IMG/VR virus record: IMGVR_UViG_3300009605_000080
Location: 1 to 30,664 of that record
Source: a virus
Strand: one strand, 5' to 3'
Length of the DNA: 30,664 nucleotides
Made by a program: the position numbers and the translations under genes. The notes under the pieces were generated by a model that was not told the DNA's origin, did not search any database, and was given only the letters and a program-made list of their open reading frames with translations. This document shows positions 1 through 30,025 of the stretch, piece by piece (within the stretch, counting starts at the first letter, position 1; every line of letters starts with the position of its first letter).

Positions 1-68
1 CCCTCCACTGCTCGAATAAAATTTCGGCGGTTCTGATACCGCCGAAATTTTATTCGAGCAGTGGAGGG
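1..68. repeat. Perfect 30-bp inverted repeat with 8-base loop at sequence edge
   Basis: Bases 1-30 are the exact reverse complement of bases 39-68, separated by the loop TTCTGATA (31-38). A perfect 30-bp stem starting at base 1 is either a fold-back chimera from amplification or assembly, or a real hairpin or terminal structure. The loop is not itself palindromic, which argues against a protelomerase-type resolution site. The right arm runs directly into the ribosome-binding region of the first gene, so that arm is probably the genuine genomic strand. Confidence 0.9.
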
Positions 69-80
69 AGAAAAACGGCC

Positions 81-332
81 ATGTTGGCTGGTGCATCAAT
101 TCCCACAATCAGCCGCTTGAGATTTGGCGGCGGGTGCCGGGGTTCCGCGAGAACTACCATGCCCGCTGAAGCCAAGAAATTCCCGATCGGCTGCCGGGTG
201 GAGTTCGATGGCCGCAAGGGGAAGGTGATTAGCCATTATTCGCTGTATACCGTCGAGGTGGAGTGGGATGGCCGTGGACCGTCCCTCGTCAGCACGACCG
301 TATTGAAGAAATTGAAAGGAGGCAAGAAATGA
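81..332 (+). CDS. Small SH3/KOW-like hypothetical protein
   Basis: I do not recognise a named family. The second half of the protein (from MPAEAKKF) is a short basic beta-rich unit, with IGCRVEFDGRKGKV followed by TVEVEWDGRGP, which resembles small SH3/KOW-like folds found in phage accessory genes. Two starts are possible. ATG 81 has a GGGAG ribosome site ten bases upstream and gives 83 residues. ATG 159 lacks a good ribosome site but begins exactly at the conserved-looking part and gives 57 residues. The stop overlaps the start of the next gene as ATGA, so the two are translationally coupled. The N-terminal 26 residues look non-domain-like, so the shorter form may be the real protein. Confidence 0.55.
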   Translation: MLAGASIPTISRLRFGGGCRGSARTTMPAEAKKFPIGCRVEFDGRKGKVISHYSLYTVEVEWDGRGPSLVSTTVLKKLKGGKK

Positions 333-676
333 AAGTGCTCGTATGCGGAGGTCGGAACTACACAAACCAGCTGCGGTTGTTCGATGTCCTTGATCGCTTG
401 CACCGGATACGTGGACCCATCACGACGGTCATCCATGGTGAGGCCAAGGGCGCCGATCGGTTAGCCGGTGATTGGGCCATATCACGAGACATCATGATCG
501 ACAGCTACCCAGCACAGTGGGGCAAGCATGGTCGGGCGGCTGGCCCGATCCGCAATCGGCAAATGATCGAGGAGGGCCGGCCAGATCTGGTCGTGGTGTT
601 TCCCGGGGGCCGTGGCACCGCCGACATGCGGAAGCGCGCCCTGGCGACTAAGATCAAGGTGGAGGACGTACAATGA
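329..676 (+). CDS. DUF2493 / YspA-like SLOG-family protein
   Basis: This 115-residue protein starts at ATG 329 with a strong AAAGGAGG site just upstream, and it overlaps the previous stop as ATGA. It shows the DUF2493 (YspA, cpYpsA-related SLOG) pattern: N-terminal MKVLVCGGRNY (1-11), then HGEAKGADRLA (36-46), then VVVFPGGRGTADM (88-100). SLOG proteins adopt a Rossmann-like fold and are thought to bind nucleotides or nucleotide-derived ligands. Phage copies are common but have no proven role. It covers the whole usual domain, so it is intact. It belongs to a run of small accessory genes, and a second Rossmann-type protein lies about 0.7 kb downstream. Family assignment is firm; function is unknown. 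Confidence 0.85.
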   Translation: MKVLVCGGRNYTNQLRLFDVLDRLHRIRGPITTVIHGEAKGADRLAGDWAISRDIMIDSYPAQWGKHGRAAGPIRNRQMIEEGRPDLVVVFPGGRGTADMRKRALATKIKVEDVQ

Positions 677-858
677 TCGCGCCCTTTCTATACGCGTGGG
701 CGGCTTTGTGCCTGGGGTGGATACTCTGGCAGAATGAAACGGCTCACGACATCCCAACGGCATTCGGCGTCCTGCTGGTGTCGCTATTCTGGCCGGTGGC
801 GGTCCCACTGTGCTGGTTCATGGAGCAACTGCAGAAGAGAAGGCAGAGGGATGGGTGA
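673..858 (+). CDS. Small two-helix membrane protein
   Basis: This is a 61-residue protein starting at ATG 673, overlapping the preceding stop as ATGA. It has two hydrophobic segments, roughly residues 2-19 (APFLYAWAALCLGWIL) and 31-49 (AFGVLLVSLFWPVAVPLCW), and a short basic tail ending QKRRQRDG. Both segments are long enough to span the inner membrane with a short connecting loop. I do not recognise a family. The position among early or middle accessory genes, far from the lysis module, argues against a holin, although the topology alone would allow one. The gene is tightly packed between its neighbours, which supports it being real. Confidence 0.6.
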   Translation: MIAPFLYAWAALCLGWILWQNETAHDIPTAFGVLLVSLFWPVAVPLCWFMEQLQKRRQRDG

Positions 859-1069
859 GCACCCACCAGGGAGATCAGCACAGGCTCACTGGGCCATGGA
901 TATTACCTCCAACACGACGGAGCGTGAAGCCCTGAAGATAATTGCGGCCTATATCCTGGGCGGCAATCTCACCGCACACCGCCGGTCGATGCTCCAGCAA
1001 CGTGCTGAACAAATCCCTGGGCAGTATTTCCCAGGGGAACTCCTACCGAGGAAAGGAACTAGGAGATGA
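851..1069 (+). CDS. Hypothetical small protein
   Basis: This is a 72-residue protein starting at ATG 851, inside the end of the membrane-protein gene (8-base overlap), with an AGAAGAGAAGGCAGAGGG purine run upstream. It has no membrane segment. The middle, around TTEREALKIIAAYILGGNLTAHRRSMLQQRAEQI, looks alpha-helical and amphipathic. The next gene starts four bases before its stop (ATGA), so it sits in a translationally coupled series. The reading frame opens further upstream, but that part would overlap the membrane-protein gene and looks like shadow sequence. No family recognised. Confidence 0.5.
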   Translation: MGEHPPGRSAQAHWAMDITSNTTEREALKIIAAYILGGNLTAHRRSMLQQRAEQIPGQYFPGELLPRKGTRR

Positions 1070-1338
1070 GCGTTCAATTAGGCGAAACATTGAAGGACCG
1101 CATTACTGGCTTCACAGGCGTGGTCCTGGGGTATGTGGTCTATATCTCAGGCTGCAATCAGGCCCTCCTGGCACCACCCGTCGACAAGGACGGGAAGCAT
1201 GTATCGAGCCACTGGTTCGATGAGCAACGGTTGGTCCACCCAGAATGGCCGAAGAAGAAACCCAAAAAGAAACGGGAGCCCATCGTCCTGGATAATGTTG
1301 CCACACCGGGGGCCGCTGATCCGGCACCCACCAAGTAG
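1066..1338 (+). CDS. Small phage protein with SH3/KOW-like core
   Basis: This is a 90-residue protein starting at ATG 1066 with a GGAAAGGAACTAGGAG site. The motif order LGETLKDRITGFTGVV, then YISGCNQALLAPPVD, then HWFDEQRL matches a small protein family seen in many phages, in which a beta-barrel-like domain carries a conserved GC(N/D)Q motif. The C-terminal 30 residues are lysine and proline rich (KKKPKKKRE) and probably disordered. The function of the family is unknown to me. It overlaps the previous gene by four bases, and a small gap with a ribosome site (GGGAGAACTGCA) leads to the next gene. Confidence 0.7.
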   Translation: MSVQLGETLKDRITGFTGVVLGYVVYISGCNQALLAPPVDKDGKHVSSHWFDEQRLVHPEWPKKKPKKKREPIVLDNVATPGAADPAPTK

Positions 1339-1349
1339 GGAGAACTGCA

Positions 1350-1835
1350 ATGAGGATCACGTTATGCGGCAGCAGCCGCTTCGAGCAAGAATTCAAGGAC
1401 TGGGCGTTCACCCTGTCCCTGAAGGGCCATCGGGTCCACGGGCTTTCTGCGTATCGGTCGGATCTGCCTGAGGGTGGGCCGGACGAGGCGCAGAAGGAAA
1501 TCCTGGACCTGCTCCACATGGCCAAGATTATGGACAGCGACGCCATCCTCGTCATCGACAAGCCAGGGGAAGGGGTGGAGAACTACATCGGCTTCAGCAC
1601 GCGGCGAGAACTGGCCTGGGCTGAGGCCATTGGGAAGCACGTATACATGGCCTCGGATTTTGCTCACAATCCCAGGGAGTTCGTGGGGACGCTGCGGTTC
1701 TATACTGATGTGGTCGTGGACCAAGCAGCCGGCCTGCAGCCCCATGGCACCATGCACCAGGACCCTCCGACGGGGGACGTGGAGCCACTTGTGCCACAAC
1801 GACCAACGGCGGAGGAGCAAGAAGCCGATGCCTAA
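1350..1835 (+). CDS. Nucleoside 2-deoxyribosyltransferase-like (SLOG superfamily) protein
   Basis: This is a 161-residue protein starting at ATG 1350. The N-terminus MRITLCGSSRFEQEF (1-15) is followed by a helix and GHRVHG, then KIMDSDAILVIDKPGEG (59-75) and YIGFSTRRELAWAEAIGKHVY (79-99). This order is typical of nucleoside 2-deoxyribosyltransferase-like Rossmann folds of the SLOG superfamily, in which the STRRE-type glutamate often corresponds to the catalytic or ligand-binding residue. It may process or sense a nucleotide-type metabolite. Activity is not shown by the sequence. The last 30 residues are low complexity (PPTGDVEPLVPQRPTAEEQEADA). It is the second SLOG-type gene in this cluster. 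Confidence 0.75.
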   Translation: MRITLCGSSRFEQEFKDWAFTLSLKGHRVHGLSAYRSDLPEGGPDEAQKEILDLLHMAKIMDSDAILVIDKPGEGVENYIGFSTRRELAWAEAIGKHVYMASDFAHNPREFVGTLRFYTDVVVDQAAGLQPHGTMHQDPPTGDVEPLVPQRPTAEEQEADA

Positions 1836-1846
1836 CCAAGAACAAT

Positions 1847-2002
1847 GTGGAGCTGTATGCAAGGGAGCTGCTGACGGCCATTCGGAACTTCCGGCACACG
1901 GCCCTAGTGGATGATGACTGGCCTGAGGTCAATGAGAAGCTGGACCTCGCCGAAGACCGCCTGGAGCGTGTGCTGCCCCTGAGGGATGGCCATGGTTTCT
2001 GA
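1847..2002 (+). CDS. Small helical hypothetical protein, start uncertain, possible frameshift
   Basis: Reading from GTG 1847 gives 51 residues (VELYARELLTAIRNFRH..., ending RVLPLRDGHGF) with coherent, acidic, amphipathic helices and codon use like the neighbouring genes. This start has no ribosome site. The well-placed site GGAGGAG at 1811-1817 instead serves ATG 1828 in another frame, which gives only 29 residues (MPNQEQCGAVCKG...) that look like shadow sequence. One missing or extra base between 1828 and 1847 would join the good start to the good body. Either the natural start is the weak GTG, or there is a frameshift or base error here. No named family recognised. Confidence 0.5.
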   Translation: MELYARELLTAIRNFRHTALVDDDWPEVNEKLDLAEDRLERVLPLRDGHGF

Positions 2003-2383
2003 GGGGGTAAAACCGACACCCGAACCCTGATTGCGGACCACTGGGGCACGCCACAGCGGGCCCTGCTAGGTGGTCATGTGGAGGTATGACTGAGGTGATT
2101 ATAGCGGCCCCGTGGGGCGATCTACGAGGCCGCAGCCGTGGTATCCATATGGTATCCAAATGGCCTCCATCTGGGAGTATTTTATGGCACCGGTGAGTAT
2201 TGGAAGATGGCAATAAAACGGCCTTTCTATATTACTTGCGCGTAGGGGTCCATGTATAGACGTTCCATGGATTAACCTCTATCAGGTTGATATATGGGGC
2301 CTGCTACCAGATATTCCTCAATAAGATCAACCGTCTATCACATTATCAGGACTTTTCGGCCATGGTCCCCTGCTGATAAGCGT

Positions 2384-2395
2384 ATAGTATCAAGG
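2384..2395 (+). repeat. 12-bp direct repeat, copy 1 (ATAGTATCAAGG)
   Basis: ATAGTATCAAGG occurs here and again at 2564-2575. Each copy is preceded within about 20 bases by TGCTGATA (2371 and 2541), so the repeated unit is composite: a CTGATA element followed by an inverted TATCAA element. The reverse complement of its core, CCTTGATA, occurs at 2499-2506. Confidence 0.6.
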
Positions 2396-2412
2396 ACTTA
2401 GGGTCGCGCAAC

Positions 2413-2433
2413 GCGCGGGATACGCACCCGCGC
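2413..2433. repeat. GC-rich perfect hairpin in control region A
   Basis: GCGCGGG (2413-2419) pairs perfectly with CCCGCGC (2427-2433) across the seven-base loop ATACGCA. No T-run follows, so it is not a standard intrinsic terminator. The overlapping string CGCGCGGGA (2412-2420) is repeated in control region B at 28324-28332. Confidence 0.6.
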
Positions 2434-2471
2434 AGGTGAACTCGTCGCAAGGTTTGAAATGTCCGTCAGTA

Positions 2472-2494
2472 CTGATTATACTGATATACTGATA
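2472..2494 (+). promoter_or_regulatory. Triple CTGATA array, region A
   Basis: Three hexamers, CTGATT at 2472, CTGATA at 2481 and CTGATA at 2489, are spaced 9 and 8 bases apart. The 23-base block is identical at 21 of 23 positions to 28367-28389 upstream of the helicase operon. Such regularly spaced direct repeats usually mark binding of a multimeric DNA-binding protein. Whether this is an operator, activator site or iteron cannot be told from sequence alone. Confidence 0.65.
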
Positions 2495-2542
2495 TAAGCC
2501 TTGATATCATTGGGCTATTTCCATATCAGCATTTTCCCGATG

Positions 2543-2575
2543 CTGATATACTGATAGTATTGAATAGTATCAAGG
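2543..2575 (+). promoter_or_regulatory. Second CTGATA pair with ATAGTATCAAGG
   Basis: CTGATA at 2543 and 2551 (8 bases apart) is followed by a degenerate third unit TTGAAT at 2560 (9 bases on) and then the second copy of the 12-bp repeat (2564-2575). The spacing echoes the main triplet in the opposite order. It lies about 100 bases before the terminase small subunit start, where a promoter would be expected. Confidence 0.5.
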
Positions 2576-2672
2576 GGCTGGAAATATTAGAGTAGTACAG
2601 GGTGTAACGAGCGGACGCTAGATATATGATCCCATTCCCGTGAGGTTCGTGTGTGCGCGTGAGGGGAACCGA

Positions 2673-3233
2673 GTGGCTTCTAAGACAACCACAGACATTC
2701 AGAAGAAGGGCACGTCCCGCAGGGGCCTGAAGCGGGCAGCAAAAGCCCGTGGCAGCAAGGCACCGGGCCGAGGCCATCCAGTCACGAAAGCCCACCTGGC
2801 CTATTTCCTTAATGAGCTCATGCAGTATCCGTGCGTGTCATCGGCGGCGCTCGCTGCTGGCATCGGACGTGAGCCGCTATACCGCCGCCGTCATGAGGAC
2901 GCGGACTTTGCTAAAGCATGGGAGGAGGCCAAGGCTATTGGTGCCGAGGCCGCTTATGAGGAGGAGGCCAATCGGCGAGCTATCCATGGTGTGGATGAGC
3001 CGGTGATCTATAAGGGCGAGATGCAGTACCGCATAGACCACACGACGGGGTTGCCCATGTTGGATGAGAACGATGAACCCATCCCCCTGACGGTGCGGCG
3101 ACCCTCGGACACGCTGCTGATCTTCCTCATGAAAGGCGCCAATCCGGGTAAGTACCGTGACGGGCCTCAGACCAATCTCAATCTGGCGGTCGGTGTCAAG
3201 ATCGTGGTGACGGGCGATGACACCAGACTTTAA
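2673..3233 (+). CDS. terS: Terminase small subunit
   Basis: This protein recognises phage DNA and helps load the packaging motor. I chose GTG 2673 because a GAGGGG site lies seven bases upstream; GTG 2640 in the same frame has no comparable site. The product is 186 residues. A lysine- and arginine-rich N-terminus (KKGTSRRGLKRAAKARG) precedes a helix-turn-helix-like part with the pattern LNELMQYPCVSSAALAAGI, then YRRRHEDADFAKAWEEAKAIG. This resembles terminase small subunits of HK97-like phages, including the EANRRAIHGVDEPV stretch and the C-terminal RRPSDTLLIFLMKGANPGKY. It overlaps the large subunit gene by 17 bases. It is the first gene of the late operon. Confidence 0.85.
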   Translation: MASKTTTDIQKKGTSRRGLKRAAKARGSKAPGRGHPVTKAHLAYFLNELMQYPCVSSAALAAGIGREPLYRRRHEDADFAKAWEEAKAIGAEAAYEEEANRRAIHGVDEPVIYKGEMQYRIDHTTGLPMLDENDEPIPLTVRRPSDTLLIFLMKGANPGKYRDGPQTNLNLAVGVKIVVTGDDTRL

Positions 3234-4503
3234 ATTGACCGAGCGGCAGATCGCCGCCAACCGTATGCTGGGTGACCCCCAGCGCCATACCCTGCTCGTG
3301 GGTGGATCCAGATCGGGCAAGACATTCCTGATCATTCGTGCCATCATCATACGTGCGGCCAAGGCCGCCAATTCACGGCATTTGATTACGCGCCTCCGTG
3401 CGAACGCCGTTCGTGCGTCGGTGTGGTTGGACACGTTCCCCAAGGTGCGAGATTTGTGTTTCCCTGATTTGCCGATGACCGAACATCGACAGGACGGCTA
3501 TTTCGAGCTGCCCAATGGTTCGGAGATTTGGTTCGGTGGCCTGGATGACAAGGAGCGGGTGGACAAAATCCTCGGCCAGGAGTACGCCACCATCTTCCCG
3601 AATGAGTGCTCCCAGATCCCATACAGCTCCATCAAGACGTTGCTCACGCGGCTTGCGCAACGCGCGCCCGGGCTCGTGCAGCGTGCCTATTACGACCTCA
3701 ACCCGGTGGGCGTGGGGCATTGGACCAATCGGCTGTTCGTGCAGAACAAGAACGTCGACAACGAGGAGAAGCTGCGGAACCCCGATCAGTATGCCCTCAT
3801 GTATATGAACCCGGAAGATAACAAGGAGAATTTGGACCCGGCGTATCTCGACGAGCTGCGGTCCATGTCGGCACGGCACCGCCAACGGTTTTACGAGGGC
3901 AAGTATGTCAGCGAGGTCGAAGGGGCCTTGTGGACAGCGGACATGATCGAGAGCTCGCGGGTATCGGAGGACGACGTGCCAGATCTGAAACGGGTGGCCG
4001 TCGCCGTGGACCCGTCAGGCGCCTCGGGCCCTGAGGATTATCGGTCGGATGAGATCGGGATTATTGCAGCGGGTCGGGGCGTCGATGACCATGCGTACGT
4101 GAAGGCTGACAATTCCTTGCGGGCATCGCCTGAGGTGTGGGGGCGCATTGCCGTCGACACTTACAACGAGCACGAGGCAGACCTGATCGTGGCTGAACGG
4201 AACTTCGGCGGTGAGATGGTGGCGGCTGTGATCCGTGCCGTTGATCCTCATGTGCCGGTCAAGCTGGTGACGGCGTCACGGGGCAAGGTCGTGCGGGCCG
4301 AACCTGTTGCGGCGTTATATGAGAAGGACAAGATACACCACGTCGGTCGGTTCCCCCGGTTCGAAGATCAGTTGATTAACTTCACGACGGCTGGCTATGT
4401 CGGGGACAAATCCCCTGACCGTGCGGACGCTGGCGTCTGGGGCCTGACTGAGCTCATGCTCAAGACGGGAACTGGCCGAGCCGTCATGCCACACATTTCA
4501 TGA
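3217..4503 (+). CDS. terL: Terminase large subunit (packaging ATPase and nuclease)
   Basis: This is the motor that pumps and cuts DNA at the portal. The product is 428 residues, a normal size. The ATPase domain has Walker A GGSRSGKT (29-36) and a Walker B-like end in YATIFPNEC, with the catalytic glutamate at about 130. The C-terminal RNase-H-like nuclease starts at VAVDPSGA (Asp 265), continues through DLIVAERNFGGEM, and ends with SPDRADAGVWGL, whose aspartates at about 401 and 404 are candidates for metal binding. It follows the small subunit with a 17-base overlap. The Walker B string FPNEC is slightly unusual but keeps the catalytic glutamate. I cannot tell a cos from a pac mechanism from the sequence. 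Confidence 0.95.
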   Translation: MTPDFKLTERQIAANRMLGDPQRHTLLVGGSRSGKTFLIIRAIIIRAAKAANSRHLITRLRANAVRASVWLDTFPKVRDLCFPDLPMTEHRQDGYFELPNGSEIWFGGLDDKERVDKILGQEYATIFPNECSQIPYSSIKTLLTRLAQRAPGLVQRAYYDLNPVGVGHWTNRLFVQNKNVDNEEKLRNPDQYALMYMNPEDNKENLDPAYLDELRSMSARHRQRFYEGKYVSEVEGALWTADMIESSRVSEDDVPDLKRVAVAVDPSGASGPEDYRSDEIGIIAAGRGVDDHAYVKADNSLRASPEVWGRIAVDTYNEHEADLIVAERNFGGEMVAAVIRAVDPHVPVKLVTASRGKVVRAEPVAALYEKDKIHHVGRFPRFEDQLINFTTAGYVGDKSPDRADAGVWGLTELMLKTGTGRAVMPHIS

Positions 4504-4513
4504 AGGAGCGATC

Positions 4514-4849
4514 ATGCTGAAATTTGCACAAGGCGTAGCGGCTACTCTGTTAGCCATGGCCCTCGTTTATGGTGCGGTGGCCTGGGCCGCTGACACGTTC
4601 TCGACGGATCGGATCGGTCTGCAGAGCCCATTCAATAACGGCTTTGAAGTCACGCCGCATGATACCAACGAGCTGACCAACCACACCCGGGCCATTTATG
4701 TGGGTGGTGCCGGCAACATTTCGTTGACGACCAGCGGCGGCGATCTATTCACGATGACTGGTGTGCTGGCTGGGACGTTATACTGGGTTCGTGCCAAGAT
4801 CATCCTGTCGACTGGCACTACAGCCACCAACCTGGTCGGATTGTACTGA
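4514..4849 (+). CDS. Exported spike-base-like protein (RCAP_rcc01079-like family)
   Basis: This is a 111-residue protein starting at ATG 4514, with an AAGGAG site a few bases upstream. Residues 1-26 form a textbook signal peptide: MLK, a hydrophobic core (GVAATLLAMALVYGAVA) and a cleavage-like AWA-AD. The rest, with LQSPFNNGFEVTPHDTNEL, RAIYVGGAGNISLTTSGGD and LSTGTTATNLVGLY, follows the pattern of spike base proteins known from the Rhodobacter gene transfer agent and many alphaproteobacterial phages. Those proteins normally lack a signal peptide and sit with tail genes. Here the gene sits between terminase and portal and should be exported to the periplasm. It could be a decoy or surface-active version. 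The family match is from memory of motif order; the signal peptide is directly visible. Confidence 0.65.
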   Translation: MLKFAQGVAATLLAMALVYGAVAWAADTFSTDRIGLQSPFNNGFEVTPHDTNELTNHTRAIYVGGAGNISLTTSGGDLFTMTGVLAGTLYWVRAKIILSTGTTATNLVGLY

Positions 4850-4863
4850 GGGAGGGCTTGGAT

Positions 4864-4953
4864 ATGTTGGCGCAGAACTACGGGTTCTGGACGGCCGCAT
4901 ACTGGCCAAGGATTGCTGTCGGTAACAAGGTGCTGTTGGTCGTGGAGGGCTAA
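4864..4953 (+). CDS. 29-residue hypothetical peptide
   Basis: ATG 4864 follows an AGGGAGGG site at suitable distance and encodes MLAQNYGFWTAAYWPRIAVG followed by nine more residues to TAA at 4951. The next gene (portal) starts at the very next base, so translation would be coupled. The peptide is rich in Trp and Tyr with a hydrophobic C-terminal half, but it is too short for a full membrane span. No family recognised. It could be only a leader for the portal gene. Confidence 0.45.
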   Translation: MLAQNYGFWTAAYWPRIAVGNKVLLVVEG

Positions 4954-7026
4954 ATGGGACGCTTGCGAAATGCCTGGACTGCACTTGTCGGCCGTAAGGA
5001 GAGCATGGCAGGCCATGTCGTCGCGTTGGGTGACATGGGCCAGCCGGCATGGACGCCACGGGACTATGGCAATCTCGCCAAGGAGGCGTATCAGAAGAAC
5101 GTAGTGGCGTTTCAATCCATCAATATGGTGGCGCAAGGATTTGCTCAGATCGATTGGGAGCTGTTCCGTAAGGGCCGTGGTGATCGGGCACAGCTTGATG
5201 AGCATTCATTGCTGAACCTCGTGAAACGACCCAACCCCATGACCGGCGGTGCTGACTTGTTCAGCGCTTGGGGAGCATTTCTGCTAATCGCCGGCAATTC
5301 GTACCTGGAGGCTGTTGGACCTGACGGGAAGGAACCGATCGAATTGTGGAACCTGCGCCCCGACCGCATGAAGGTCGTACCCGGCAAGACGGGATTGCCG
5401 GCCTTGTACCGTTACAGCCTCAAGGGTCGCGATGTGGACTGGCCCGTAGACCCCTTTACGGGCCAGTCCCTCGTGAGCCATTGGCGGACATTCAATCCAC
5501 TCAACGACTGGTATGGCATGAGCGCCATTGAAGCAGCGGCGTTCTCTGTGGACCAGCACAACTCAGCCGGCCAATGGAACCAGTCCATGCTTCAGAACAG
5601 GGCCATGGTCGGTGGAGCACTCATCTTCAAATCCACGGACGAGGGTGGCGGACCTGCCGTCCTGTCGCCAGAGCAACGTGCATCACTGCAGCACCAGCTG
5701 GATACGAGGTTCGCTGGAGCGCGGAATGCTGGCAGGCCTGTCCTGCTGGAAGGAGATTTCGATTGGAAAGAAATGAGCCTGACACCCAAGGACATGGACT
5801 GGCTCAAGGGGCGTGATGTTTCGGCCCGTGATGTGGCGCTGGCGTTCGGGGTGCCGCCCCAGCTTGTGGGCATCCCGGACGCTGCCACCTATTCCAATAT
5901 GCGTGAGGCCCGGTTGGGGCTGTGGGAAGAAACCATCTTGCCCCTGTTGGACAAGGGGCGGGATGAACTCAACAACTGGCTGGTGCCGATGTTTGGTGAT
6001 GACTTGGCGCTGGAGTACAACGCCGACGTTGTGCCGGCCTTGAACATGCAGCGGCAGCGCAAATTCGAGACATTTGGAGGGGTGGATTTTCTTACCATCA
6101 ACGAGAAGCGGGAGGCCGTGGGTTATGAGCCAGTGGATGGCGGCGACGATATCCTTGTCAATGCTGGCCTGCTGCCGCTCGGATTTTCCCTTGGTAATGA
6201 CGACGAGGGGCAGGTCGCTCTAGCCAGCCCTGGTGGCCTGTCCTACAAGTTGTTGACGGACAGGTCGCCGGGTGCCCAGGCCAGGGAATTTGCACAACAC
6301 ACCCGGCTGCAGATCGCCCGCGCACGTGGGCTCGCAAGATCCATGATAGCAGAATTGCGTCGTGTGGCACGGGACGCGGCGGCGGGATATGCCGAGGGTG
6401 GCCTGAGTGAGGCCATGCACCGCACGGACCAGCACGACGAGCGCGTCACCTTGGCCTTGCGCGCCCACTACACCACGGTCATGGACACATTCGGTGAGCG
6501 CATTCTTGACGCCGCCAAGGATCAGGGGGCGGTGGAGACCAAGGATGCTGCTGACGCCTTTGCGTTGTCGCGGGATGAGTGGATCGGCACCCATGCCGCG
6601 AAGAAGGTAACGGCTATCAGCAAGACCACGCGGGACCAGATCCGTAATGCCGTGGCCGAGGGTGAGGCCGTGGCTGAAGGCACCGTGGCAGTGGCCCGTC
6701 GGATCACGGAAGCCACGGGCGGGCTCATTGCGCGTAATCGCGCGGTCCTTATCTCCCGCACGGAGACCCATTCGGCAGCGGTGGCGGCAGGTGATCAAGC
6801 TGCCGAGGCAACAGGACTGCAGTTGCAGAGGGAGTGGATTGCGGCTGGTGACGACCGGACCCGTGAGACGCACATCGAGGCGAATGGTCAAGTGGTCCAA
6901 CTCAAGCAGCCGTTCCGTGTTGGCAATGGTGATCTGATGAGACCCGGTGATCCCAGCGGACCACCTGAGGAGACGATCAACTGTCGCTGTGTCATTGGGC
7001 ACCTGACACCAGAGGAGGTAGCATGA
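4954..7026 (+). CDS. Portal protein fused to Mu gpF-like head morphogenesis domain
   Basis: This is a 690-residue protein starting at ATG 4954, directly after the previous stop. Residues 1 to about 410 are an HK97-type portal: VVAFQSINMVAQGFAQIDWELF, LVKRPNPM, LLIAGNSYLEAV, LRPDRMKVVPG, YGMSAIEAA, GVPPQLVGIPDAATYSNMREAR and WLVPMFGDDLALEYN. After a linker, residues about 450-690 are a Mu gpF/SPP1 gp7-like head morphogenesis domain, with LISRTETHSA, WIAAGDDRTRETH (from residue 628), PFRVGNGDLMRPGDP and the conserved INCRC (675-679). These two functions are usually separate adjacent genes. Here they are one open frame with no stop or shift between them. The portal forms the DNA channel at the capsid vertex; the F-like part probably assists early head assembly or is injected. 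Confidence 0.9.
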   Translation: MGRLRNAWTALVGRKESMAGHVVALGDMGQPAWTPRDYGNLAKEAYQKNVVAFQSINMVAQGFAQIDWELFRKGRGDRAQLDEHSLLNLVKRPNPMTGGADLFSAWGAFLLIAGNSYLEAVGPDGKEPIELWNLRPDRMKVVPGKTGLPALYRYSLKGRDVDWPVDPFTGQSLVSHWRTFNPLNDWYGMSAIEAAAFSVDQHNSAGQWNQSMLQNRAMVGGALIFKSTDEGGGPAVLSPEQRASLQHQLDTRFAGARNAGRPVLLEGDFDWKEMSLTPKDMDWLKGRDVSARDVALAFGVPPQLVGIPDAATYSNMREARLGLWEETILPLLDKGRDELNNWLVPMFGDDLALEYNADVVPALNMQRQRKFETFGGVDFLTINEKREAVGYEPVDGGDDILVNAGLLPLGFSLGNDDEGQVALASPGGLSYKLLTDRSPGAQAREFAQHTRLQIARARGLARSMIAELRRVARDAAAGYAEGGLSEAMHRTDQHDERVTLALRAHYTTVMDTFGERILDAAKDQGAVETKDAADAFALSRDEWIGTHAAKKVTAISKTTRDQIRNAVAEGEAVAEGTVAVARRITEATGGLIARNRAVLISRTETHSAAVAAGDQAAEATGLQLQREWIAAGDDRTRETHIEANGQVVQLKQPFRVGNGDLMRPGDPSGPPEETINCRCVIGHLTPEEVA

Positions 7027-7070
7027 GAGTTCTGATGATTTGGGACATGCAGCTAAGGCGAAGGAGCTAA
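7023..7070 (+). CDS. Possible 15-residue micro-ORF between portal and protease
   Basis: ATG 7023 overlaps the portal stop (ATGA) and has an AGGAGG site four bases upstream. It encodes MRVLMIWDMQLRRRS and ends four bases before the protease start. It may only keep ribosomes moving into the protease gene. There is no evidence of a function, and it may be chance. Confidence 0.25.
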   Translation: MRVLMIWDMQLRRRS

Positions 7071-7074
7071 CGCC

Positions 7075-7761
7075 ATGATTGAGATGAAACGGATCGACTG
7101 CTCGTTGACAGTCACCAAGGACCTGTCGGAAGACGGCACATTCGAGGGCTATGGTTCAGTGTTCGATGTGCTGGACAGCGATCGCGAGATCGTTGTTAAA
7201 GGAGCCTTTGAGAAATCGCTGAAGGAGAAGGGGCCGCGTGGTATCAAGTTCCTTTGGCAGCATCGGACGGACCAACCCGTCGGCATCTTCCCGGAGATGG
7301 GTGAGGATGAGCGAGGCCTGTTTCTAAAAGGCGACATCGCGACTGCTGCCTCGCAGGGCAGGGATGCTTATGAGTTGCTCAAGATTGGAGCACTCGATGG
7401 ATTGTCCATCGGCTTCCGAACGGTCAAATCGGAAATCGATGAGGAAGTACGGATCAGGAAGCTGGTTGAGATTGATCTATGGGAGGTCTCCCTGGTCACT
7501 TTTCCAGCCAACTCACAGGCGCGAGTGAGCGCCGTAAAAGATGATGTTGCGTTCGCCGGTCTGGCCGGGATGGCCAGCACCATTGAGACAGAACGTGACT
7601 TCGAGGGTCTTCTACGGGACGTAGGGTACTCGCAGCAAGAGGCCAAGGCCATTACAGCCAATGGCTTCAAATCACTTGTCGCGGCACAACGGGACGTTGG
7701 CGCTGAGGCAGACCTGATCGCGGCCATGAAGGCAGCGTCAGGGGTAATCTCCCATCAATGA
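7075..7761 (+). CDS. HK97-family prohead protease
   Basis: This enzyme removes the delta domain of the capsid protein during head maturation. The product is 228 residues from ATG 7075 (AAGGAG nine bases upstream). Family motifs are clear: FEGYGSVFDVLDSDREIVVKGAF near the N-terminus; WQH with catalytic His 63; GALDGLSIGF with catalytic Ser 111; and EIDLWEVSLVTFPANSQARV, which carries the acidic residue of the triad and the usual F-PAN motif. Residues after about 155 form a helical tail (FEGLLRDVGYSQQEAKAI) that is common in this family. It lies between portal and capsid protein, the normal place. Confidence 0.93.
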   Translation: MIEMKRIDCSLTVTKDLSEDGTFEGYGSVFDVLDSDREIVVKGAFEKSLKEKGPRGIKFLWQHRTDQPVGIFPEMGEDERGLFLKGDIATAASQGRDAYELLKIGALDGLSIGFRTVKSEIDEEVRIRKLVEIDLWEVSLVTFPANSQARVSAVKDDVAFAGLAGMASTIETERDFEGLLRDVGYSQQEAKAITANGFKSLVAAQRDVGAEADLIAAMKAASGVISHQ

Positions 7762-7779
7762 CAATGAGGATATTTTGTC

Positions 7780-9024
7780 ATGGCTGATCAAGCGCCAGAC
7801 GTGAAGGAGGTCGTCGAGAAACTCTCGAAAGACGTTGCCACCTTCATCGAGACGAACGACCAGCGCCTCAAGCAGATCGAAGACAAAGGCAGTGCCGATG
7901 TCGTGACTACGGAGAAGCTCGAGCGGATCGAGAAAGGCCTCGATGCCCTCGAGACCATCAATCAGCAGATTACCAAGGCTGCTGAGGATGTCAAGACCCA
8001 GGCCGAGAACGTCGCCGAACAGGCGGAGCAGCTCGACCGGATCGAAACTTCTCTGAAGCGCGTCGACAAAGCCGCTGGTCCCGATTTGGAGACGCAGGAA
8101 AAAAAGGCAGCGTTCTTCAACTATTGCCGTCGTGGCAAGGAGGCGATGACCGCTGAGGAAATCAAGGTGCTGACCGTGGGTGATGATGCCACCGGTGGCT
8201 ACTTGGCTCCTTCCGAGTACGTTCGGGAAATCATCAAGGACGTCGTGGAAATGTCGCCCATCCGCACGATCGCGCGGGTTCGCAGCACCACACAGCGCTC
8301 CGTGATGCATCCCAAGCGCACCGGCACCTTCGCCGCTGTGTGGGTCCATGAGGCCGGCACCCGTTCGGAAACGACGGGTCTGACCTACGGGCTGGAGGAA
8401 ATCCCCACGCACGAGCACTATGCGCTGGTGGACATCTCCGAGCAAGACCTCGAGGACAGTGCGTTCAACCTTGAGGCCGAACTCAACATGGAGTTCGCCG
8501 AACAGTTCGGCGTCTCCGAAGGCACAGCGTTCGTGAACGGCGACGCCGTGGGACAGCCCGAGGGCTTCCTGCAGAACGGCGACGTCGGCACTACGAACTC
8601 CGGGCACGCAACGCTGATCCAGGCCGACGGTCTGATCGACACATTCCACGCCATCAAGTCGGCGTATGCCCGCAATGCTGTCTGGGTCCTCAACAGGAAC
8701 TCCATCGGCGCCGTCCGCAAGTTGAAGGACGGCAACGGTCAGTACTTGTGGATGGCCGGCATTGCGAACGGCGTTCCGAACACGATCATCGGGGCACCGT
8801 ATGTCGAGGCAACGGACATGCCCAACCAAGCCGCGGCCGCCAACTCGGTCGCTTTCGGCGACTTCCGTCGGGGCTATCTCATCGTGGACCGCATTCGCCT
8901 GTCGGTTCTGCGTGATCCCTATACGCAAGCCGCGAGCGGCAACGTCCGCTTCATTGCCCGTCGCCGTGTCGGTGGGCAGGTGGTGCTCGCCGAGGCGCTT
9001 CGCCTCAACACCATCTCGGCCTAA
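7780..9024 (+). CDS. HK97-family major capsid protein
   Basis: This is a 414-residue protein starting at ATG 7780. Residues 1 to about 105 are a charged coiled-coil delta domain (repeats of EKLERIEKGLDALE and AEQAEQLDRIE types) that acts as internal scaffold and is normally cut off by the protease encoded just upstream. The mature part has the usual HK97 signature elements: GDDATGGYLAPSEYVREII, MSPIRTIARVRSTTQ, AFVNGDAVGQPEGFL, WVLNRNSIGAVRKLKD, GAPYVEATDMP, and AFGDFRRGYLIVDRIRLSVLRDPY. Codon use here is strongly biased to C/G third bases, as expected of a highly expressed gene, and this creates a very long false open frame on the opposite strand. Confidence 0.96.
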   Translation: MADQAPDVKEVVEKLSKDVATFIETNDQRLKQIEDKGSADVVTTEKLERIEKGLDALETINQQITKAAEDVKTQAENVAEQAEQLDRIETSLKRVDKAAGPDLETQEKKAAFFNYCRRGKEAMTAEEIKVLTVGDDATGGYLAPSEYVREIIKDVVEMSPIRTIARVRSTTQRSVMHPKRTGTFAAVWVHEAGTRSETTGLTYGLEEIPTHEHYALVDISEQDLEDSAFNLEAELNMEFAEQFGVSEGTAFVNGDAVGQPEGFLQNGDVGTTNSGHATLIQADGLIDTFHAIKSAYARNAVWVLNRNSIGAVRKLKDGNGQYLWMAGIANGVPNTIIGAPYVEATDMPNQAAAANSVAFGDFRRGYLIVDRIRLSVLRDPYTQAASGNVRFIARRRVGGQVVLAEALRLNTISA

Positions 9025-10124: not shown

Positions 10125-11579
10125 ATGCTGACCACGTACTACAAGGGATGTGCGCTCGTCATTGCTGCGGTCCTTGCGACCGCGGCGATGGCGGGCCACG
10201 TTCCAAGTTGGGGTCTAGTGGTAGCACCCAAATGGCTGGCGATTGAAGTGCTGGCTGCCGTGGGGTGCGTGCTGCTGATTACCGATCGGGCTCGCCTGGA
10301 TGTCGTCGATATGGTGGCCGGGATGATGCTCGCTTGGGCTGCAGCCTCCATTGCATGGACCCCCGACGTTGCTCAGTACACACATCAGATGTTCCATGCC
10401 ACGGCGTTGCTCATATTGTTTATTTTGGTCCGACGAGTGGACCAAGATTTCTTGATTACTGCGATGAGTTGGGCTGCCGCTGCGGCAATTATCGTTGCTA
10501 GCGTTAGTGATATCCTCCGGCCAGATTGGCGAGGGGGCTTTGGGAATGACAACTTGGTCTCGGAGATGATCCTGGTGGCGCTGCCCTGGGCCGTGTGGCG
10601 AGTGCCTTGGGTTATCCGCAGTGCCGTGGTCATTGCTGCCGCCTACCAGCTTTGGGACAACCCCAGCCATAGCGAGTTCGTCGCTTTTGCGGGCATGGTC
10701 GCCTTCGCCATATGCGCCTGGAGACGCCGTGTGATGACCACTGATCTTCTTATCATAGCCTTGGGCCTATCCGTTGTCCTCTTGGTCGTCCTGTGGAGCA
10801 GTACGGAGCTCCAGACGTCCTTACGCTTCCGTTGGGAATTCGCTCAGACCACGCTGCGGATGTGGTGGGCTGCTCCATTGATCGGGCAGGGATTTGGTGG
10901 GTATCTGTACCAGTATCCTTTTTTCGCGACGGCACCATTCACGGAAGTGGTGACGCCGGGCACCGTGGTCGAGGCAGCGCACAACGAATATCTGCAGCTG
11001 TTGAGCGACCTGGGTCTTGTGGGATTTGGCATCGTCACCATTTTTGCGGTCATGGTCCTAAAGCGATGTGTGGGCATCGGCCCCCATTGTTTTTCCCTGG
11101 CCGCCCTGGCAACCCTGGCCCTGGTGTCCTTCCCCTTACAGAACCCAGCGACGGCCTTCATGGCGGTCGTGGGCCTGGGAGTAATGGCACCCGCCTTCGG
11201 GCGTGCGCGAAGGAGCGCGCTGCGTCGGCTGGTGTTGCCTGGGTTGATGGCAGTGACGATAGCGATCGTTGGCTACTATGGCATCAAGGAGGCCAAGGCC
11301 GAACAGATGCACATGATCGCTGAGAACGTTAAACGGGAGGTGCCGAAGCTGGCTTACCAGCTTGAGCGGATGGCCCTCAGGGAGTATCCCTTCTATAATC
11401 TGCGTCGGATCGTTCTATTCCCGGCGCTAATGAGGTGGGTGAGGTTGGACCCGAAGCACGGTGTCCCGCCGAAGAAATTCGGGGAGGCAATGCTCGTGAG
11501 CACACTCGCTTCTCCCCGATCCAATCCGGTGGTGCTCACGACATTGGAGTATGCGGCCATGCGTGGTCATCTTAAATAA
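10125..11579 (+). CDS. Wzy/WaaL-like O-antigen polymerase or ligase (Wzy_C domain) in the head operon
   Basis: This is a 484-residue polytopic inner-membrane protein starting at ATG 10125, immediately after the preceding stop. It has around ten hydrophobic segments. It shows the Wzy_C/O-antigen ligase hallmarks in order: GGFGNDNLVSEMILVALPW (137-155), SHSEFVAFAG (181-190), RFRWEFAQTTLRMWWAAPLIGQGFGGY (234-260) with the conserved arginines, a periplasmic loop, then AHNEYLQLLSDLGLVGFG (285-302) with the conserved His 286. Enzymes of this group polymerise O-units or join O-antigen or similar glycans to a lipid acceptor at the periplasmic face. Residues after about 390 form a soluble tail (KLAYQLERMALREYPFY). 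Sequence alone cannot separate polymerase, ligase or protein O-glycosyltransferase. Its place between head and connector genes is unusual and implies late expression. Confidence 0.85.
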   Translation: MLTTYYKGCALVIAAVLATAAMAGHVPSWGLVVAPKWLAIEVLAAVGCVLLITDRARLDVVDMVAGMMLAWAAASIAWTPDVAQYTHQMFHATALLILFILVRRVDQDFLITAMSWAAAAAIIVASVSDILRPDWRGGFGNDNLVSEMILVALPWAVWRVPWVIRSAVVIAAAYQLWDNPSHSEFVAFAGMVAFAICAWRRRVMTTDLLIIALGLSVVLLVVLWSSTELQTSLRFRWEFAQTTLRMWWAAPLIGQGFGGYLYQYPFFATAPFTEVVTPGTVVEAAHNEYLQLLSDLGLVGFGIVTIFAVMVLKRCVGIGPHCFSLAALATLALVSFPLQNPATAFMAVVGLGVMAPAFGRARRSALRRLVLPGLMAVTIAIVGYYGIKEAKAEQMHMIAENVKREVPKLAYQLERMALREYPFYNLRRIVLFPALMRWVRLDPKHGVPPKKFGEAMLVSTLASPRSNPVVLTTLEYAAMRGHLK

Positions 11580-28298: not shown

Positions 28299-28531
28299 AT
28301 GCATATCACCATATCCGCATCCCCGCGCGGGAGGATTTAGTGACGGTGGCGAAAGGTCGAAAAAAGCTGATAATACTGATATGCTGATAATATCATTCTA
28401 GATCAGGGGGTTAGGCGTATCACCTAGCGGGCGTGTACTGATAATCGGATACTTCCGCTTTTTGTCGCCCCCGGGGGGTGTTCCTTATTTCCCTGGTATG
28501 GTTCATGGTCCATACGAATGGGAGAATTGAC
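28240..28531. promoter_or_regulatory. Gene-free control region B before the helicase operon
   Basis: This gap of about 290 bases contains, in order, the long hairpin above, the 10-bp palindrome CCCGCGCGGG (28322-28331), the sequence AAGGTCGAAA, the CTGATA triplet at 28367-28389, a further CTGATA at 28438, TATCACC at 28304 and 28418, and the palindrome CCCCCGGGGG (28468-28477). No gene is convincing. A 39-codon frame from about 28268 has no ribosome site. The shared elements with region A indicate a common regulatory design. I see no clear sigma-70 promoter. Confidence 0.6.
28367..28389 (+). promoter_or_regulatory. Triple CTGATA array, region B
   Basis: CTGATA occurs at 28367, 28376 and 28384, spaced 9 and 8 bases apart as in region A. 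It matches 2472-2494 at 21 of 23 positions. It stands about 140 bases before the helicase start. An isolated CTGATA follows at 28438. Confidence 0.65.
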
Positions 28532-30025
28532 TTGGCTAAGCGGACCAAACGACGGCGAGTGGTCAGCACAGCTGACTATAAATTTAAGTCCACCCCGCGA
28601 CCTTACCAGCAAGTCGTGTTTGAGCAGTCGCGTGATCGGGAATGGTATGCCATCTTCCTGGAGCAGGGTCTCGGCAAGACCAAGATCGCATTGGACACCG
28701 CGGCGTGGCTGTATGACACGGGGGAGATAAATGCCCTGGTGGTGACGGCGCCGAACGGGGTCCACCGGGAATGGGCAACGGATCAGATCCCTGAGCACTT
28801 ACCCGACCGTGTACGCGCGTGCTCCTTGATATGGCGCTCCGGCCGGGTTGGTGGGAAGGCCTACACCAAGGAGCTGAATGACCTGATCGGGCATGAGGGG
28901 CTGGCGGTCTTCCTAATCAATGTCGAAGCCGTCATCACAAAGGCCGGCAAGGCATACCTTAAGAAATTCTTGCTAGCCCGCCGCACGCTCATGGTCATCG
29001 ATGAGAGCACAACGATCAAGAACCCTGGCGCGTCACGAACGAAGCTGCTGTCCGCCGCCAGGAAATACGCGGACTACCGCCGGATCATGAGCGGCACCCC
29101 AACACCCCAAGGACCATTTGACTACTACTCGCAGTTCCGTTTCCTCAGTCCGTCGATCCTGGGCTTCGACTCTTTTTATGTGTTCAAACACCACTTCGGT
29201 TCTTTCGAGCGGAAGTTCGCTGGTGGGTCCACCGGGCATCAGTACGACAGCCTGACGGAGTACAGAAATCTGAGCGAGTTGCGGGACATGATCGCCGATC
29301 ATTCCGTCCGCCTGACGAAGAAGGATTGTGCCGTAGATCTGCCACCAAAAATCTACAAGAAAAGGTATTACCCCCTGCCCTCCGATCAGCGCAAAATCTA
29401 CAATCGGCTGCGGGATGAGTTCTTAATTGAGCTGTCCGGGGGCTCAGTCGGTATCCCCATGGTGCTGACTAGGATCACCCGGCTTCAGCAGATTACATGC
29501 GGTTTCTTACCAGCCGACTTCGACGATCCGGATGCTGGGTGGGAAGACGTCGGCGACAAGCAGCCACGGATTGAAATGGCCATGGAGGCCATCCTGGACT
29601 CTCCAGGCAAAACTATCGTCTGGTGCAGGTTCCGACATGACGTGGATGCTCTTTGTGAGGCCTTCAGCCAGGCTGACGTGGCCGCCGTGAGATACGATGG
29701 GGCTGTACCCCAAAATAAGCGGCCAGCGGCCCTCAAGGCGTTCCGTGAAGGTAAGGCCAGGGTGTTCGTGGGCAATCCCCATGCTGGTGGACGGGGGCTG
29801 AACCTGCAAGTGGCCGACACGGTCGTTTACTTCTCGAATGACTTTTCGCTGGAGGCCCGGCTGCAGAGCGAGGATCGGGCGCACCGGCTCGGCCAGAAGA
29901 ATACGGTGGTCTACATCGACCTGATTGCTGAGAATACTGTCGACGAGAAAATTGTGACGGCTTTGCGGGATAAGAAAAGCATGGCCGACCTATTGACGGG
30001 GGATGACCCAGAGGAGTGGCTATGA
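28532..30025 (+). CDS. SNF2-family DNA helicase/ATPase
   Basis: This is a 497-residue protein, taken from TTG 28532 because GGGAG at 28520 gives good spacing and the residues before it look non-domain-like; an upstream in-frame ATG exists at 28505. Motifs in order: Q/I with Walker A EQGLGKT (44-50), TAPNGVHREW (Ia), DESTT (157-161, motif II), SGTPTPQGPFDYYSQ (188 onward, motif III), TIVWCRFRHDV (IV), GNPHAGGRGLNLQVADTVVYFSNDFS (V) and QSEDRAHRLGQ (445-455, VI). Such helicases in phage replication operons are thought to unwind or remodel DNA. The gene begins the second operon, after control region B, and overlaps the next gene by four bases. Confidence 0.93.
   Translation: MAKRTKRRRVVSTADYKFKSTPRPYQQVVFEQSRDREWYAIFLEQGLGKTKIALDTAAWLYDTGEINALVVTAPNGVHREWATDQIPEHLPDRVRACSLIWRSGRVGGKAYTKELNDLIGHEGLAVFLINVEAVITKAGKAYLKKFLLARRTLMVIDESTTIKNPGASRTKLLSAARKYADYRRIMSGTPTPQGPFDYYSQFRFLSPSILGFDSFYVFKHHFGSFERKFAGGSTGHQYDSLTEYRNLSELRDMIADHSVRLTKKDCAVDLPPKIYKKRYYPLPSDQRKIYNRLRDEFLIELSGGSVGIPMVLTRITRLQQITCGFLPADFDDPDAGWEDVGDKQPRIEMAMEAILDSPGKTIVWCRFRHDVDALCEAFSQADVAAVRYDGAVPQNKRPAALKAFREGKARVFVGNPHAGGRGLNLQVADTVVYFSNDFSLEARLQSEDRAHRLGQKNTVVYIDLIAENTVDEKIVTALRDKKSMADLLTGDDPEEWL

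What the first reader, a model, noticed from the sequence alone, without database searches (positions are those of the whole stretch)
2280..2575. Dense two-orientation CTGATA/TATCAG cluster and 12-bp direct repeat
Region A has many hexamers on both strands, an 8-base spaced inverted pair (TATCAC 2336, TATCAG 2344), a TATCA-GGT-TGATA dyad at 2280-2292, and ATAGTATCAAGG repeated at 2384 and 2564, each after TGCTGATA. This is far more structure than a simple promoter needs and resembles a multi-site operator or an origin.
Basis: seen in the sequence. Interest (0 to 1): 0.6.

Follow-up and report, generated by a model that had tools for sequence, protein, structure and literature searches.

The report
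Paired phage control regions with CTGATA
This stretch is one of two matching switch-like control regions in a bacterial virus, one in front of its particle-building genes and one in front of its DNA-copying genes, and a distant relative carries the same short repeated word at the same two places, so one regulator probably acts on both gene sets.

Summary
The cluster is real: 8 CTGATA/TATCAG copies in 296 bp (shuffles average 0.3; none of 2000 reached 8). It is the most locally clustered hexamer of the ~53.4 kb genome, which near-identical contigs complete. Every long gene lies on the + strand. CTGATA clusters only in the two non-coding regions that head the gene modules: region A before terS/terL (the finding) and region B (28367-28443) before the SNF2-type helicase. 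A and B share a 23-bp triple tandem repeat, CTGATwATACTGATATrCTGATA (steps 9 then 8 bp), found nowhere else in the genome. In a distant relative (G012; helicase 40% identical, different terminase families), 9 of 16 CTGATA copies fall in the same two places, including a triple tandem before the helicase. That argues for function and against a packaging site. In Pseudomonas phages YuA, Ab18 and PaMx11, with the same layout, the terS- and helicase-upstream regions also share repeats, and the YuA record annotates a promoter in each. Best reading: paired multi-site operators that let one DNA-binding regulator coordinate both transcription units. The regulator is unidentified. An origin is not excluded, but GC skew and the second cluster do not support it. 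The 'inverted pair' at 2336/2344 is a direct 8-bp repeat.

The parts
2003..2672 (+). Region A: non-coding control region upstream of terS/terL and the structural module
   Evidence: No convincing ORF; lowest-GC 200-bp stretch of the genome (40%) lies inside it; three other contigs have it identical and one has a single mismatch
2472..2494 (+). Composite triple tandem repeat CTGATTATACTGATATACTGATA (steps 9, 8)
   Evidence: 21/23 identical to the element at 28367 and nowhere else in the genome within 5 mismatches
2280..2292 (.). Dyad TATCA-GGT-TGATA
   Evidence: Read directly
2336..2349 (-). Direct repeat TATCAC-TATCAG, 8-bp step
   Evidence: Read directly
2371..2395 (+). Module TGCTGATA...ATAGTATCAAGG, copy 1; includes the start of a WATCARNNNNTTR (IHF consensus) match at 2388-2400
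2523..2549 (.). Perfect 10-bp inverted repeat ATATCAGCAT-7-ATGCTGATAT
2541..2575 (+). Module TGCTGATA...ATAGTATCAAGG, copy 2 (spacing 10 bp longer), with tandem CTGATA pair 2543/2551
2454..2482 (+). Sigma70-like promoter candidate TTGAAA-17-TATACT; its -10 overlaps the composite
   Evidence: 10 of 12 matches; consensus match only
2673..3233 (+). Terminase small subunit
   Evidence: phrog_4044, E 5e-32
3217..4503 (+). Terminase large subunit
   Evidence: phrog_979 E 2.8e-73; PF17289
28240..28531 (+). Region B: non-coding control region upstream of the replication module
   Evidence: Second and only other CTGATA cluster
28367..28389 (+). Composite triple tandem repeat CTGATAATACTGATATGCTGATA (steps 9, 8)
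28438..28443 (+). Fourth CTGATA of region B
28532..30025 (+). SNF2-type helicase, first gene of the replication module (TTG start with GGGAG inferred)
   Evidence: phrog_62 E 8e-121; PF00176

Best explanation
Region A is the control region of the structural (late) module, and region B is its twin in front of the replication module. Each carries an array of CTGATA half-sites, including a triple tandem stepped by 8-9 bp plus inverted copies. One sequence-specific DNA-binding protein, phage- or host-encoded, most likely binds these cooperatively and so represses, activates or switches both transcription units together. Shown: the array, its twin, its restriction to these two places, its conservation in a distant relative, and the shared arrangement in YuA-type phages. 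Inferred: protein binding, cooperativity, regulation, and the sign of regulation. Not identified: the protein.
For: Clustering far above chance. Only two clusters in the genome, each just upstream of the first gene of a module on a genome whose long genes all run one way. A 23-bp composite shared 21/23 with the same 9+8 geometry; local score 36 against a maximum of 35 in 1000 shuffles. Test on distant relative G012 with motif and positions fixed beforehand: 9 of 16 CTGATA copies in 572 bp upstream of its terS-terL block and its helicase (P 3e-13), with a triple tandem of steps 9, 9. Terminase families differ while the motif is kept (phrog_979/4044 vs phrog_9/5601). In YuA, Ab18 and PaMx11 the place most similar to the terS-upstream region is the helicase-upstream region. 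The YuA record annotates a -35/-10 promoter with measured activity in both, and YuA's AAGTAAGTTAAG tandem occurs only in those two regions.
Against: No transcription or binding data. No regulator identified: Pfam, PHROGs and NCBIfam scans of the unannotated proteins gave no transcription factor. In G012 the helicase-side triple runs in the opposite direction relative to the gene, so it is not a promoter core element. Four other contigs with a related polymerase lack a CTGATA cluster before the helicase. The sigma70-like match in A is weak evidence.
Confidence: 0.68

Rival explanations
1. Region A (or A and B) is a replication origin: the CTGATA repeats are iterons bound by an initiator, next to an AT-rich unwinding element.
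For: A contains the most AT-rich 200-bp stretch of the genome; short tandem and inverted repeats resemble iterons; the motif is conserved in G012, which shares the replication proteins but not the terminase; orientation is not conserved.
Against: GC-skew extremes are at ~8.2 and ~48.2 kb; no DnaA box; two equivalent clusters at the heads of both modules; no recognised initiator gene found.
Confidence: 0.18
2. A packaging site (pac or cos) recognised by TerS next to its own gene, as in the lambda cosB R-sites.
For: Position directly upstream of terS.
Against: A twin lies 26 kb away before the helicase; the motif is kept in G012 although TerS and TerL belong to other families; four other contigs read through A, so it is not a physical end in those assemblies.
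Confidence: 0.05
3. A host nucleoid protein (IHF-like) or host global regulator, not a phage protein, uses the sites, as CtrA does in some Alphaproteobacteria phages. This is a version of the operator reading.
For: An exact IHF consensus match at 2388, one of four in the genome; precedent of CtrA-site clusters in phage gaps beside the terminase (PMC9437464).
Against: The tandem CTGATA sites lack the TTR half of the IHF consensus; no CtrA TTAA-N7-TTAA match in the genome; host unknown. The 3 hits of the composite pattern in 84,980 genomes were scattered (Clostridium, a Lachnospiraceae and a Bacteroidales MAG), with no host regulon visible.
Confidence: 0.15
4. Chance accumulation of AT-rich words in a non-coding stretch.
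For: The region is AT-rich.
Against: Composition-matched shuffles never give the counts; twin element and conservation in a distant relative.
Confidence: 0.01

Closest known systems
Pseudomonas phage YuA (Yuavirus, Mesyanzhinovviridae): promoter regions 489-568 and 33014-33160
   Same: One-direction gene order as annotated; promoters upstream of the SNF2-type helicase and of terS; the two regions share tandem ~9-bp repeats found nowhere else in that genome
   Different: Different repeat sequence (AAGTAAGTT); the record also annotates -24/-12 promoters, whereas the sigma54-type pattern searched had no match in our genome
Abidjanvirus Ab18 and PaMx11: terS-upstream and helicase-upstream regions
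   Same: Same layout; the two regions share a block of repeated short words (ACTYGAG)
   Different: The shared block is ~300-390 bp and inverted; different words
G012 = IMGVR_UViG_3300048589_000566
   Same: Same CTGATA word, same two positions, triple tandem before the helicase
   Different: Steps 9, 9; opposite orientation relative to the helicase; other terminase family; helicase 40% identical
CtrA-site clusters in Alphaproteobacteria phages such as vB_BsubS-Delta (PMC9437464)
   Same: Many sites of one regulator in a large intergenic gap beside the terminase module
   Different: The CtrA consensus is absent here; in that phage the gap separates divergent modules
Halovirus HF2 intergenic repeats that carry promoters (PMC8707807, abstract only)
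   Same: Repeated intergenic elements acting as promoters in a virus
   Different: Archaeal virus, long repeats, unrelated sequence

Membership tests
Paired module-head control regions of YuA-type phages | Long genes in one direction, with long non-coding regions before terS and before the SNF2 helicase | tested here: met
Paired module-head control regions of YuA-type phages | The two regions share a repeat-rich element not found elsewhere in the genome | tested here: met
Paired module-head control regions of YuA-type phages | Active promoter in each region | not testable with these tools
   No transcription data; only a consensus match at 2454-2482
Multi-site operator | Several copies of one word, direct and inverted, beyond chance, next to a promoter or gene start | tested here: met
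Multi-site operator | A cognate DNA-binding protein | tested here: inconclusive
   No known regulator found; a winged-helix domain is predicted in one phage protein, with no link to these sites
Iteron replication origin | Skew switch or depth peak at the site | tested here: inconclusive
   Skew extremes are elsewhere, but skew is weak evidence in a one-direction genome; no read depth
Iteron replication origin | Initiator gene or DnaA boxes | tested here: inconclusive
   No DnaA box in the genome; no initiator recognised, though many proteins have no family
pac/cos site | Unique site by the terminase genes, tied to the terminase type | tested here: not met
   Twin at 28367; motif kept with a different terminase family
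CtrA-controlled gap | TTAA-N7-TTAA sites | tested here: not met
   None in the genome

The most novel reading that the evidence does not exclude
YuA-type and related one-direction phages carry a previously undescribed master switch: a regulator that binds tandem 8-9-bp half-sites placed at the heads of both the replication and the structural modules. The site sequence changes between lineages (CTGATA here and in G012, AAGTAAGTT in YuA, ACTYGAG in Abidjanvirus), but the paired geometry stays.
Probability: 0.3. Interest if true: 0.65.

Novelty: new variant of a known kind. Interest (0 to 1): 0.5.

Why it matters
Lytic-looking phages without a recognisable repressor, RNA polymerase or sigma factor still have to time replication and particle building. 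A motif shared by the heads of both modules, conserved while the terminase changed, shows where that timing control probably sits and gives a defined DNA bait for finding the regulator. The same comparison works in the culturable Pseudomonas phages YuA, Ab18 and PaMx11.

Tried and rejected
TerL relatives at 50-62% identity (L014-L090) lack the cluster; TerL is mosaic there, so this says little. The palindrome ATATCAGCAT-N7-ATGCTGATAT in unrelated contigs L093/L094 is coincidence. The composite pattern hits 3 scattered bacterial genomes, not followed further. No Rfam match and no tRNA. Packaging site rejected because the motif survives a terminase swap. CtrA and DnaA consensus absent, and no match to the sigma54-type pattern searched. 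The fold search with the whole 327-aa model was uninformative because most of it is low-confidence. The triple-tandem scan (10 hits in ~6.0 kb of control regions, 10 in ~271 kb elsewhere) was defined after seeing examples, so it is only descriptive; PaMx11 gave no hit in its regions. Phage phiJL001 was not in the collection under the accession tried. Contigs G007, G009 and G010 showed no tandem array in the 600 bp before the helicase.

Full report
WHAT THE WINDOW IS. The window is a 30,664-bp record of a virus. A 52,836-bp contig (G001, IMGVR_UViG_3300009602_000016) is 99.9% identical and circularly permuted relative to it. Window 30-7843 equals the end of G001, 8377-30664 equals its start, and contig L003 bridges the two ends, giving a genome of ~53.4 kb. 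The first ~30 bases of the window are a fold-back artefact: they are the reverse complement of the next bases and are not contiguous in G001. Every long, family-assigned gene is on the + strand: a structural module from terS (2673) to ~28,239, and a replication module from an SNF2-type helicase (~28,532) through primase, UvrD/Dda-like helicases, methyltransferase and DNA polymerase A to small genes that lead back to ~2,002. No integrase, repressor, RNA polymerase or sigma factor was recognised in the scans made.

THE OBSERVATION. Eight CTGATA/TATCAG copies lie in 2280-2556. Composition-matched shuffles of the same 296 bp average 0.33, and none of 2000 reaches 8; no 300-bp stretch in 50 whole-genome shuffles exceeds 3; CTGATA is the most clustered hexamer of the genome. 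The dyad at 2280 and the 12-bp repeat at 2384/2564 are as described. The pair at 2336/2344 is direct, not inverted. Same-strand TGATA sites 8-9 bp apart occur 5 times in the two clusters, against 0.9 expected inside the same spans (p = 0.002).

THE TWIN. Elsewhere the hexamer clusters only at 28367-28443, upstream of the helicase. A and B share CTGATTATACTGATATACTGATA / CTGATAATACTGATATGCTGATA, 21 of 23 identical, with repeat starts stepped 9 then 8 bp. The local alignment score of 36 was not reached in 1000 shuffles (maximum 35), and no other place in the genome comes within 5 mismatches of the composite. Scanned across IMG/VR, the composite pattern with these steps hits only contigs of this same phage.

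TEST IN A DISTANT RELATIVE. The DNA polymerase led to G012, a 40-kb contig (GC 63.5%) whose replication module is syntenic: helicase 40%, Pam3-gp32/33/34-like proteins, primase 46%, polymerase 48% identity. Motif and positions were fixed beforehand by this phage. In G012, 9 of 16 CTGATA copies fall in 572 bp made up of the gap before its helicase and the gap before its terminase block (binomial P 3e-13). CTGATA is the only hexamer with at least 4 copies in both gaps, and the helicase gap holds CTGATA-CTA-CTGATA-CTG-CTGATA, steps 9 and 9. G012's TerL and TerS are phrog_9 and phrog_5601, whereas ours are phrog_979 and phrog_4044. The motif therefore outlived a terminase exchange, which argues against a TerS-binding packaging site. 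In G012 the triple runs opposite to the helicase gene, so the element behaves like a binding site, not a directional promoter core. Of the other contigs tested, G008 has an AATCAGCC triple tandem (8-bp step) at 23827, by its helicase-upstream gap, but no CTGATA cluster; G007, G009 and G010 show no array in the 600 bp before the helicase. The arrangement is not universal.

CULTURED COMPARISONS. Pseudomonas phage YuA has the same layout. Its record annotates promoters with measured activity and clear -35/-10 signals at 489-568, before the helicase, and at 33014-33160, before terS. These two YuA regions share a 57-bp block ending in GTAAGTAAGTTAAGTAAGTTAAG; AAGTAAGTTAAG occurs only at 631, 640, 33169 and 33178 in that genome. 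In Ab18 and PaMx11 the two regions share ~300-390 bp in inverted orientation. Searching each whole genome with the terS-upstream region, the best match is the helicase-upstream region in all four phages: 36 vs 31 next best here, 69 vs 34 in YuA, 290 vs 40 in PaMx11, 393 vs 38 in Ab18. The margin in our phage is small on this measure; the composite test above is the stronger one. Roseobacter phage RDJL6 has nine GGACCAG sites in both orientations, with tandem pairs 9 bp apart, in a 973-bp non-coding gap upstream of its terminase genes.

MECHANISM. The best-supported reading is paired multi-site operators for one regulator of both modules. Shown: anatomy, twin, exclusivity, conservation. Inferred: protein binding, cooperativity, regulation and its sign. 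The binder is unknown. Family scans found no transcription factor. One 327-aa phage protein (genome position 39,704-40,687 in window-extended coordinates) has a C-terminal domain predicted as a winged helix (pLDDT 76) that aligns to the DNA-binding domain of BirA biotin repressors (Z about 8, rmsd 1.5-3.3 over 58-62 residues). Winged helices of proteasome and COP9 subunits score as well, and tblastn found no homologue of this protein in G012, so it is only a candidate. A host regulator is equally possible; CtrA does this in some Alphaproteobacteria phages (PMC9437464), but its consensus is absent here.

ORIGIN READING. Region A contains the lowest-GC 200-bp stretch of the genome. Detrended cumulative GC skew peaks at ~8.2 kb and bottoms at ~48.2 kb, away from A and B; no DnaA box matched; and there are two equivalent clusters. 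Origin function remains possible and needs read depth.

LIMITS. All other contigs of this phage are near-identical in A and B, so sequence-level footprinting rests on one distant relative. The triple-tandem scan across phages was defined after examples were seen. The 'early' and 'late' labels are by analogy with gene content, not by measured timing. The literature library holds open-licence papers only; the original YuA paper was not read, and its promoter data are taken from the sequence record.

Noticed in passing
window 1-68: Perfect 31-bp inverted repeat at the contig start is a fold-back assembly artefact: the first ~30 bases are absent at that place in G001 and L001.
   Followed up: yes
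L107/L115 (Ab18), L119/L120 (PaMx11): Two non-coding regions, before terS and before the helicase, share a ~300-390-bp inverted copy rich in ACTYGAG words.
   Followed up: partly
L114:34112-35084 (Roseobacter phage RDJL6): Nine GGACCAG sites in both orientations, in tandem pairs stepped 9 bp, in a non-coding gap.
   Followed up: partly
L153 (G008 contig position 23827): AATCAGCC triple tandem with an 8-bp step by the helicase-upstream gap of another phage contig.
   Followed up: no
window 10125-11579: Membrane protein with a Wzy_C O-antigen ligase domain inside the structural module, unusual among head genes.
   Followed up: no
L006:5902-6882: 327-aa phage protein with a predicted C-terminal winged-helix domain; no relatives in the viral collection beyond this phage.
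   Followed up: partly
window 2415-2437: GC-rich 7-bp stem (GCGCGGG/CCCGCGC) between the two halves of the CTGATA cluster, without a T run.
   Followed up: no
window 2139-2160: Tandem TGGTATCCATA / TGGTATCCAAA, 11-bp step, in the same non-coding region.
   Followed up: no
window 28456-28480: Terminator-like hairpin between the region B array and the helicase start, possibly an attenuator.
   Followed up: no
window 2388-2400: Exact IHF consensus match (one of four in the genome) overlapping the first copy of the 12-bp repeat.
   Followed up: no
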